A stretch of 64,000 nucleotides of DNA, taken from assembly GCF_013705725.1 (NCBI RefSeq), contig NZ_CP055481.1, forward strand, positions 4,402,001-4,466,000. Reading direction: 5' to 3'. Numbering within the stretch: position 1 is the stretch's first letter; each line of letters opens with the position of its first letter. The translations under genes and the position numbers were made by a program. The notes beneath the pieces are model-generated. The model did not search any database and was not told the origin of the DNA. It worked only from the letters and a program-made list of their open reading frames with translations. The stretch comes from Klebsiella sp. RHBSTW-00484 (GTDB lineage: Bacteria > Pseudomonadota > Gammaproteobacteria > Enterobacterales > Enterobacteriaceae). Shown one piece after another: positions 23,862-26,102 of this stretch.

Positions 23862-23881
23862 ATGAGTGAGTAAGCACTCAT
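23862..23881. promoter_or_regulatory. RamR operator in the romA-ramR intergenic region
   Basis: ATGAGTGAGTAAGCACTCAT has seven-base arms ATGAGTG/CACTCAT around six bases, matching the known RamR-binding palindrome. It lies 54 bases upstream of romA and 116 bases upstream of ramR and appears undamaged. Confidence 0.93.
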
Positions 23882-24214
23882 TATTAGGAAGAAGCTGAAA
23901 GTCGTCAAGACGATTTTCAAATTTTGACAGTCGGCGTTGCAGTGCCCATGCCAGGCATGCTTAGATCAGGTTTTTATAACGTGTGAGGTAAAGTGTAGTG
24001 GCTCGTCCTAAGAGTGAAGATAAAAAGCAAGCGTTACTGGAGGCCGCAACCGCCGCCTTTGCCCAATCGGGAATCGCCGCCTCAACCTCCGCTATCGCCC
24101 GCAGCGCCGGGGTTGCTGAGGGGACGCTGTTTCGCTATTTTGCCACCAAGGACGATCTGCTTAACGAGCTTTACCTCTCTATCAAATCGGGTTTAGTTCA
24201 GGTGATGGTGTCTA

Positions 24215-25367
24215 AATAGCTGCGCCTAATACCGCTACACTTTTGCCTGACCATGTTTTCCTCCGGGGAATGGGCTGGCGGTTTCCATAAAATGGCGGAC
24301 CTTTTTCAGTAACTGCCACATTGAGCGGCACTGATGATTACGGGTTATCGTGTCATGAAGTGCCTGCCATAGCCGTTCCACATGATTCACCCACGGCGAG
24401 TAAACCGGCTGGTAAATTACCCTGAACTTGGGATTTGCTTTCAACCAGCGCTGTGTTTCGCGGCTTTTATGGATAATGTAGTTATCAACGATCAGCGTGA
24501 TTGTTTTCGCCCGCCGGTAAGTGGCTTTCAGGTGCTTCAGCAGAGCGATAAACAGCGCTGAACTTTTGCTGTTGCCGCCCACGTAGCTGACTTTACCCGT
24601 GCCACTGTGCAGTGCGCCGGCCAGATAGTATTTTTCGTTCTGCCCCGGCGTCACTACCCGTTTCTGCTGTCCGCGCAACTGCCAGTCCGCACCGATTTTA
24701 GGATTAAGGTGGATATCCACTTCATCTTCATAAAATACCGGATGCTCTGCGCTGCATTCATCCAGCGCTTTGTGGATTACCGCCATCTTTTCATCTTTAT
24801 GTGGGTCACGGATACGCAGAGTTGGCGCGGCCCTGCGCCATACAAGCCCCGCAGATGGCAACCAGCGGCGAACGGTTCCTGCATGTAACTGGCAACCGGT
24901 TATCTCATTGATTTTTATTGCCAGTAATTCGGTGCTCCAGCGTGAACGTTGATAACCAAAATCGCCGGGAGAATGCTTTATCAGCTCACGTAACAGGGTG
25001 CAGATATGTTCAAAAGGCCAGCGTCGGGAGCGCCCTGCGGGTAAGGATTTCAGGCCTTCAATACCTGAGTGCGTAAACCAGTTAATCCAGCGACCAACGG
25101 ATGAACGGGCACAACAGAGAGTTCTGGCAACATCGCTGACCCGTTCACCCCGATGAAGCATCAGCATGGCCGTGAGTCTGCGGGCATGATTTTTATCACG
25201 CGTTTTATGAATAGCTTTCTGCATCAGGCGTCGTTCGCCACGGGGTATTGGTACTATGATCGGCATCGCTCAGTCCGGTTGGTGATTTTGGTTGGTTTGG
25301 CGATTGATCAGATCGCACAATCCGGGCTGAGTTCCCTTTCAGTGATCTACTATTCCGCGCAGCTATT
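24215..25367. mobile_element. IS630: IS630 copy inserted in ramR
   Basis: The element spans 1153 bases. Its ends are inverted: AATAGCTGCGC at 24215-24225 and GCGCAGCTATT at 25357-25367. It is flanked by TA direct repeats at 24213-24214 and 25368-25369, which rebuild the target CTAG, the known IS630 preference. The single transposase gene is on the minus strand, opposite to ramR. The perfect duplication and undecayed ramR halves point to a recent insertion. Confidence 0.96.
24235..25266 (-). CDS. IS630-family transposase (DDE)
   Basis: A 343-residue transposase matching by memory the IS630 open reading frame throughout. An N-terminal helix-turn-helix region (RVSDVARTLCCARSSVGRWI) precedes a DDE core with FYEDEVDIHLNP, TLIVDNYIIHKS and the catalytic Glu in WVNHVERLW. 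It is uninterrupted and so probably active. The gene fills nearly the entire element. Confidence 0.96.
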   Translation of the reverse strand: MPIIVPIPRGERRLMQKAIHKTRDKNHARRLTAMLMLHRGERVSDVARTLCCARSSVGRWINWFTHSGIEGLKSLPAGRSRRWPFEHICTLLRELIKHSPGDFGYQRSRWSTELLAIKINEITGCQLHAGTVRRWLPSAGLVWRRAAPTLRIRDPHKDEKMAVIHKALDECSAEHPVFYEDEVDIHLNPKIGADWQLRGQQKRVVTPGQNEKYYLAGALHSGTGKVSYVGGNSKSSALFIALLKHLKATYRRAKTITLIVDNYIIHKSRETQRWLKANPKFRVIYQPVYSPWVNHVERLWQALHDTITRNHQCRSMWQLLKKVRHFMETASPFPGGKHGQAKV

Positions 25368-25733
25368 TAGTCTTGTCCCAAATGAAACCCGCCCGAAAGA
25401 GAATGCACGTAATATCTGGAACAGCTATATCGACTGGGGCATGCGCAAGCCGATGGAGCATAAAGCCATCCGCCGCATGGCTCTCAGCGAAAGAATTACC
25501 GATGAAACGCGTACTCGGGTCAAAGAAATGTTCCCCGAGTTAAACGAGATATGCCAACTTTCGGTAAAACCCATTTTTCTTAGCGATGCGTATCGCACCT
25601 TTGGTGATGCGCTATTTTTGTCACTGGCAGAAACCACAATCGAGTACGCCAGCAACGATCCGCAGCGCGCCAGGGAACTCATTGCATTAGGCTTTGAGGC
25701 AATGTGGCAGGCGCTACATGAGGAAACTATCTG

Positions 25734-26102
25734 ATGGACCACCGCTCGCTGCATGACCACGCGCATCGTATCGCGCTGGAGCTGCCCTTTACCGAACACT
25801 GCTGGCCGTTTGGCCCGGAATACGATGTGTTTAAAGTCGGCGGGCGAATTTTTATGCTGAGCATGACGATACGCGGCCGTGCGCTGATCAACCTGAAGTG
25901 CGATCCGCAAAAATCGCTGCTTCATCAAGAGATTTACCGCAGCATCGAGCCCGGCTATCACATGAACAAAAAGCACTGGATCACTGTGGTTCCCGGCGAG
26001 GATATCAGCGAGGGCCTGCTGGCGGATCTGATCGATGATTCGTGGAATCTCGTAGTCGATAAGCTCAGCAAAAAAGAGCAGCAGCGCCTGCGCCCGGCGT
26101 GA
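25734..26102 (+). CDS. ybdF: MmcQ/YjbR-family protein YbdF
   Basis: A 122-residue MmcQ/YjbR-fold protein matching E. coli YbdF by memory (ALELPFTEHCWPFGPEYDVF, GYHMNKKHWITV, LIDDSWNLVVDKL). Function is unknown; the fold resembles CyaY-type DNA/ligand-binding domains. The ATG overlaps the ramR stop by one base (TGATG), which implies translational coupling to ramR in the unbroken locus. The IS630 insertion is therefore likely to alter ybdF expression. Confidence 0.93.
   Translation: MDHRSLHDHAHRIALELPFTEHCWPFGPEYDVFKVGGRIFMLSMTIRGRALINLKCDPQKSLLHQEIYRSIEPGYHMNKKHWITVVPGEDISEGLLADLIDDSWNLVVDKLSKKEQQRLRPA

What the first reader, a model, noticed from the sequence alone, without database searches (positions are those of the whole stretch)
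23862..25734. ramR is knocked out by a clean IS630 insertion while its operator, romA and ramA are intact
Seen: ramR is split at codon 72 by a 1153-base element with matching ends and a TA duplication at CTAG; excising it restores an intact 193-codon gene. The ATGAGTG-N6-CACTCAT operator is undamaged. Known: RamR represses romA-ramA, and loss of ramR raises RamA and AcrAB-TolC, giving reduced susceptibility to tigecycline, quinolones, chloramphenicol and other drugs in Klebsiella, Enterobacter and Salmonella. Inferred: this isolate has a derepressed ram locus. The unspoiled ramR halves suggest the event is recent, possibly under drug selection.
Basis: partly seen in the sequence, partly recalled or inferred. 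Interest (0 to 1): 0.9.

Follow-up and report, generated by a model that had tools for sequence, protein, structure and literature searches.

The report
Mobile element interrupts an efflux repressor
In a wastewater Klebsiella, a common jumping element has cut the gene for the repressor RamR in two, which very probably leaves a drug-efflux activator switched on; this is a well-known kind of mutation seen in a new strain.

Summary
A complete 1153-bp ISEc33 (IS630 family) lies at 24215-25367 inside ramR, flanked by a duplicated TA at a CTAG target. The only RamR C-half found in the genome is the broken one. The operator, romA and ramA are intact, and an AcrR-AcrAB locus with a marbox is present. 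Two other copies in the genome are identical over all 1153 bases, one on a contig that matches an IncHI1B plasmid, so the jump is recent. That plasmid identifies the genome as Klebsiella sp. RHBSTW-00464 (UK wastewater effluent), a K. oxytoca relative whose plasmid 5 carries an integron. Loss of RamR repression is the best reading: two published Klebsiella ramR mutants show ramA up 20- and 36.6-fold. Expression and MICs of this isolate are unknown. Drug selection is not shown; bile salts or chance remain possible. IS-broken ramR is a known resistance mechanism, so this is a new member of a known kind. One modest addition: among 57 distinct intact ramR sequences of relatives, only the closest (G005) has CTAG at this codon, so the target looks lineage-specific.

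The parts
22333..22674 (-). ramA, AraC-type activator, 113 aa, intact
   Evidence: NCBIfam ramA_TF 226.7 bits, cut-off 180; frame
22701..23807 (-). romA, metallo-beta-lactamase-fold hydrolase, 368 aa, intact
   Evidence: Pfam Lactamase_B_2 152.3 bits; the name romA follows from its place beside ramA (recalled)
23862..23881 (.). RamR operator palindrome ATGAGTG-N6-CACTCAT
   Evidence: exact match; 65 of 66 relative loci hold the pattern
23880..23908 (-). promoter-like site for romA-ramA; its second hexamer overlaps the operator by two bases
   Evidence: 10 of 12 matches; one site found against 2.5 in shuffles, so no more than chance
23998..24214 (+). 5' piece of ramR (DNA-binding half, codons 1-72 and the first base of codon 73)
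   Evidence: TetR_N 54.1 bits
24213..24214 (.). TA target duplication, left copy
24215..25367 (-). ISEc33 (IS630 family), complete, 1153 bp, transposase antisense to ramR
24235..25266 (-). ISEc33 transposase, 343 aa
   Evidence: DDE_3 87.1 bits
25368..25369 (.). TA target duplication, right copy
25370..25734 (+). 3' piece of ramR (ligand-binding half) with its stop
25734..26102 (+). yjbR/mmcQ-type gene whose start overlaps the ramR stop
   Evidence: NCBIfam PRK10250.1 230.2 bits, cut-off 183

Best explanation
ISEc33, present in five full-length copies in this genome, two of them on an IncHI1B plasmid, recently transposed into the CTAG at codons 72/73 of chromosomal ramR. SHOWN: the insertion, its clean TA duplication, the loss of an uninterrupted reading frame, no second RamR found, intact operator, romA and ramA, and an uninterrupted AcrR-AcrAB locus with a marbox. 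INFERRED: the 73-aa remnant lacks the dimerisation/ligand half and cannot repress; romA-ramA is therefore constantly derepressed; excess RamA activates acrAB (with tolC) and lowers susceptibility to tigecycline, quinolones, chloramphenicol and similar substrates, and may change tolerance of bile salts.
For: Element, ends, TA duplication. ISEc33: the 20 listed of 2066 matching plasmid records are 99.8-100% identical and annotated ISEc33. Five full-length copies in the genome, three identical, two at 99.6%; two lie on contig C2, which matches plasmid NZ_CP056484.1 of Klebsiella sp. RHBSTW-00464 at the same coordinates. All five, and one 84% relative, sit at CTA...TAG; IS630 preference for CTAG: Tenzen and Ohtsubo 1991 as cited in PMC6811581 (passages). 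One match each in the genome to the C-half and the N-half. Of 26 TetR_N genes over the cut-off, ramR is the only one with a short frame (75 aa; the other 25 are 196-289 aa). AcrR-like (216 aa), AcrA-like (397 aa) and AcrB-like (1048 aa) frames, with a 0-mismatch marbox at the acrR start (marbox consensus recalled). Precedent: ISKpn14 in ramR gave ramA 36.6-fold up with acrA and acrB up (PMC8573091, passages); a K. variicola ramR mutation gave ramA 20x, romA 21x (PMC11656808, passages).
Against: No expression or MIC data for this isolate. In PMC11656808 acrB, acrA and tolC rose only 1.78-, 1.55- and 1.48-fold, so the phenotype may be modest. Other regulators (MarA, SoxS, Rob, OqxR/RarA), porins and gyrA/parC were not examined. 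Plasmid resistance genes would confound MICs. The one promoter-like site at the operator is no more than chance would give.
Confidence: 0.87

Rival explanations
1. The insertion is real and abolishes RamR, but it is a chance hit of an active element with little phenotypic effect, because RamA needs further activation or acrAB barely responds.
For: acrAB-tolC rose less than twofold in a published ramR mutant (PMC11656808, passages). Another chromosomal copy sits at a stop codon of an ABC-transporter ATPase gene and one splits an alpha/beta-hydrolase-like gene, so the element is moving without obvious purpose.
Against: [quoted passage not shown] ISKpn14 in ramR came with tigecycline resistance.
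Confidence: 0.08
2. The loss of RamR was favoured by something other than antibiotics, such as bile salts or biocides in gut or sewer.
For: A ramR mutation affected tolerance to biliary salts (PMC11656808, abstract); RamR is also hit on octenidine selection in K. pneumoniae (PMC8772718, passages); wastewater source.
Against: In PMC8772718 the K. oxytoca mutants listed in the passages seen carry no ramR change. This isolate's record shows tet(C), sul1, aadA1 and dfrA1 on plasmid 5, so drug exposure of its ancestors is likely. It concerns the cause, not the mechanism, and can be true together with the best explanation.
Confidence: 0.3
3. The insertion is an assembly error or a minority variant in the sequenced culture.
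For: The element is multicopy, and reads were not available.
Against: Exact TA duplication at both ends on a 6.33-Mb contig; REHAB genomes were hybrid long/short-read assemblies (PMC8319146, passages).
Confidence: 0.02

Closest known systems
ramR interrupted by ISKpn14 in K. pneumoniae XDX51 (PMC8573091, passages)
   Same: An IS interrupts ramR; ramA, acrA and acrB measured as up; tigecycline resistance gained
   Different: IS1-family element at nt 12 instead of ISEc33 at nt 215-218; clinical in-host case with expression data, whereas here there are none
ramR mutant of K. variicola ST1563 (PMC11656808, abstract and passages)
   Same: RamR loss derepresses ramA and romA
   Different: A mutation reported at a substrate-contact residue rather than an insertion; weak acrAB induction; bile-salt effect reported
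IS630 in fliC of Shigella sonnei (PMC6811581, passages) and ISEc33 in capsule genes of K. pneumoniae (PMC12077207, passages)
   Same: IS630-family elements knocking out chromosomal genes; CTAG target stated for the first
   Different: Targets are flagellin and capsule genes, not an efflux repressor

Membership tests
IS630 family / ISEc33 | Single DDE transposase gene | tested here: met
   343-aa frame, DDE_3 87.1 bits
IS630 family / ISEc33 | TA target duplication, preferably in CTAG | tested here: met
   CTA before and TAG after in ramR and in all five full-length copies
IS630 family / ISEc33 | Near-identity to ISEc33 | tested here: met
   The 20 listed of 2066 matching plasmid records are 99.8-100% identical and annotated ISEc33; ISfinder itself was not available
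RamR | TetR-type DNA-binding half and RamR ligand half | tested here: met
   The two pieces, searched apart, match RamR structures over chain residues 2-72 and 80-192
RamR | Divergent from romA-ramA with the operator between | tested here: met
ramR-loss efflux mutants | No uninterrupted RamR encoded | tested here: met
   Frame split; one match each for the C-half and N-half in the genome
ramR-loss efflux mutants | ramA/romA and acrAB transcripts raised | not testable with these tools
   Needs RNA
ramR-loss efflux mutants | Raised MICs lowered by a pump inhibitor | not testable with these tools
   Needs culture

The most novel reading that the evidence does not exclude
In this lineage (the window's species and its closest relative G005) a lineage-specific CTAG at codons 72/73 makes ramR a preferred landing site for IS630-family elements, so plasmids that bring ISEc33 also bring a ready route to ramR loss, and independent insertions at this same base pair should recur in the lineage.
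Probability: 0.25. Interest if true: 0.4.

Novelty: new member of a known kind. Interest (0 to 1): 0.2.

Why it matters
It places a well-known clinical efflux mutation, made by an element that also sits on a plasmid of the same cell, in a wastewater-effluent Klebsiella related to K. oxytoca. Resistance tools that list acquired genes or point mutations may miss such an insertion. The lineage-specific CTAG gives a simple, testable prediction of where IS630 elements will hit.

Tried and rejected
A second ramR: rejected, one match each for the C-half and the N-half in the window's genome.

Other broken TetR repressors: ramR is the only one of 26 over the cut-off with a short frame (150 of 213 first-look candidates were scored).

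The same breakpoint elsewhere: one search found 155 short relatives of the 73-aa remnant. By design it admits only short proteins; some are partial at contig ends and some are from other genera. I compared the 120 that were listed. Six had a computed breakpoint at residue 72 or 73 (P0053, P0042, P0050, P0016, P0007, P0064), all with other tails; none ends like the window's remnant. My rule is crude: four of the 120 got breakpoint 0 because their starts differ.

Regulatory RNAs at 22000-26500: none over the gathering score. Marboxes in the ramR-romA spacer and upstream of ramA: none with at most 2 mismatches; upstream of the nitroreductase gene: none with at most 3. In the 7-kb acr stretch 7 sites had at most 2 mismatches and one had none.

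Papers: 94 hold ramR, insertion sequence, Klebsiella and tigecycline, 25 listed. Two hold both 'ramR' and 'IS630' and two hold both 'ISEc33' and 'ramR', three different papers in all; the passages shown do not report ISEc33 in ramR. This covers only the open library searched.

Full report
What is there. The window carries romA (22701-23807, -) and ramA (22333-22674, -; NCBIfam ramA_TF 226.7 bits against a cut-off of 180), divergent from ramR (GTG at 23998, +). ramR is interrupted by 1153 bases at 24215-25367. The ends are perfect 11-bp inverted repeats, and TA stands on both sides within CTA...TAG. The pieces of ramR add up to 582 nt (193 codons plus stop) by arithmetic; they were never joined. 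Each piece, searched alone, matches RamR structures: chain residues 2-72 and 80-192 of the best match. The reading frame now runs from 23998 into the element and stops after 73 aa.

The element. 2066 plasmid records hold a match and 915 of them cover at least 80% of the query in one place; the 20 listed are 99.8-100% identical and annotated ISEc33. The window's genome (G000, 6.94 Mb, 28 contigs) has eight matches: three identical at 1153/1153 (ramR; C1:2188567; C2:215853), two with 5 mismatches (C1:3068297; C2:79335), and three diverged or partial. All five full-length copies and one 84% relative sit at CTA...TAG; an 82% relative matches without its ends; the eighth, a 252-base partial match, did not appear in the flank table.

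Where it comes from. The 1499 bases beside one C2 copy match plasmid pRHBSTW-00464_2 (NZ_CP056484.1, IncHI1B, conjugative) of Klebsiella sp. RHBSTW-00464, UK wastewater effluent, at 100% and at the same coordinates, and the record's two ISEc33 genes seen fall inside the two C2 copies. That the window is this strain is an inference from this identity. The record of the strain's plasmid 5 (NZ_CP056487.1) lists tet(C), sul1, qacEdelta1, aadA1, dfrA1 and a class C beta-lactamase gene; PMC9024848 (passage) reports a 10-attC integron on it. [quoted passage not shown] that this isolate belongs to that project is inferred from its name and source.

Is ramR normally intact? 66 relative loci (48, 18; 57 distinct sequences) all have an open ramR of 190-196 codons. 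In one search, 19 of 20 genus genomes, own included, matched the N piece; G014 did not and was not pursued. The C-half is 97% identical in protein to K. oxytoca NBRC 105695. Against the closest relative, G005 (L059), codons 1-71 and 74-193 show 25 base changes in 22 codons, 20 silent and 2 altering: ramR was under purifying selection until recently. The identical element copies agree. So the event is recent.

A lineage-specific target. CTAG at nt 215-218 of ramR occurs in 1 of 57 distinct relatives' sequences, that of G005; 11 of 57 have a CTAG anywhere in the gene. Neither window piece holds a CTAG of its own. CTAG is rare in this chromosome: 131 in a 380-kb sample (19 stretches) against 1453 expected from base composition, or about 0.2 per gene of this length. 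One CTAG in ramR is thus only mildly unusual; what is notable is that it is shared by the closest relative and absent at this place from the others examined.

Mechanism. The operator at 23862-23881 is exact. A promoter-like site for romA-ramA overlaps it by two bases, but one such site is no more than chance would give. The target side is in place: an AcrB-like pump at C1:4638870, with AcrA-like and AcrR-like frames beside it and a 0-mismatch marbox at the acrR start (gene names from sequence and order, consensus recalled). Published ramR losses raised ramA 36.6-fold with ISKpn14 (PMC8573091, passages) and 20-fold with a mutation in K. variicola, the latter with acrB, acrA and tolC up only 1.5- to 1.8-fold (PMC11656808, passages). 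I therefore expect strong ramA/romA derepression and a moderate, broad loss of susceptibility. Expression and MICs are untested.

Selection. 'Possibly under drug selection' cannot be decided. For: resistance genes in the strain, and short RamR relatives with varied breaks among the 120 inspected of 155 in the protein database, a search that by design admits short proteins only. Against: the environmental source; ISEc33 also sits at a stop codon of an ABC-transporter ATPase gene (seemingly harmless) and inside an alpha/beta-hydrolase-like gene (names by eye), so the element moves anyway; bile-salt tolerance is another possible advantage (PMC11656808, abstract).

Verdict. A real, recent, correctly described ISEc33 knockout of ramR. 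The mechanism is well known, so it is a new member of a known kind. The modest addition is the lineage-specific CTAG.

Noticed in passing
25370-25734, compared with L013, L014, L016, L064: The 3' half of ramR looks mosaic among relatives: against K. spallanzanii (L013) the ramR-romA spacer is 99%, romA 92% and yjbR 90% identical, but the last 183 nt aligned of ramR only 69%. A C-half tree of 14 rows splits K. spallanzanii, K. grimontii, K. indica and G008 (100/100) from the window, G005, K. oxytoca and G011 (99/100). This may be exchange of the drug-sensing half; no tree of the flanks was made.
   Followed up: partly
25732-25736: The yjbR start codon overlaps the ramR stop, so the insertion may lower yjbR expression.
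   Followed up: no
L005:1153-3405 (G000:C1:3068297): A 99.6% ISEc33 copy splits an alpha/beta-hydrolase-like gene (name by eye, not searched).
   Followed up: no
L003:725-1501 (G000:C1:2188567): An identical ISEc33 copy sits at the stop codon of an ABC-transporter ATPase gene (name by eye) and supplies a stop itself; CTAG contains TAG, so IS630 elements may often land harmlessly at gene ends.
   Followed up: no
P0063, P0065, P0066, P0079, P0103: Five short RamR proteins share the tail GNDSNLLIVFYVQ from about residue 55-59, which looks like the end of an IS1-type element (recalled), i.e. repeated IS insertion in ramR.
   Followed up: no
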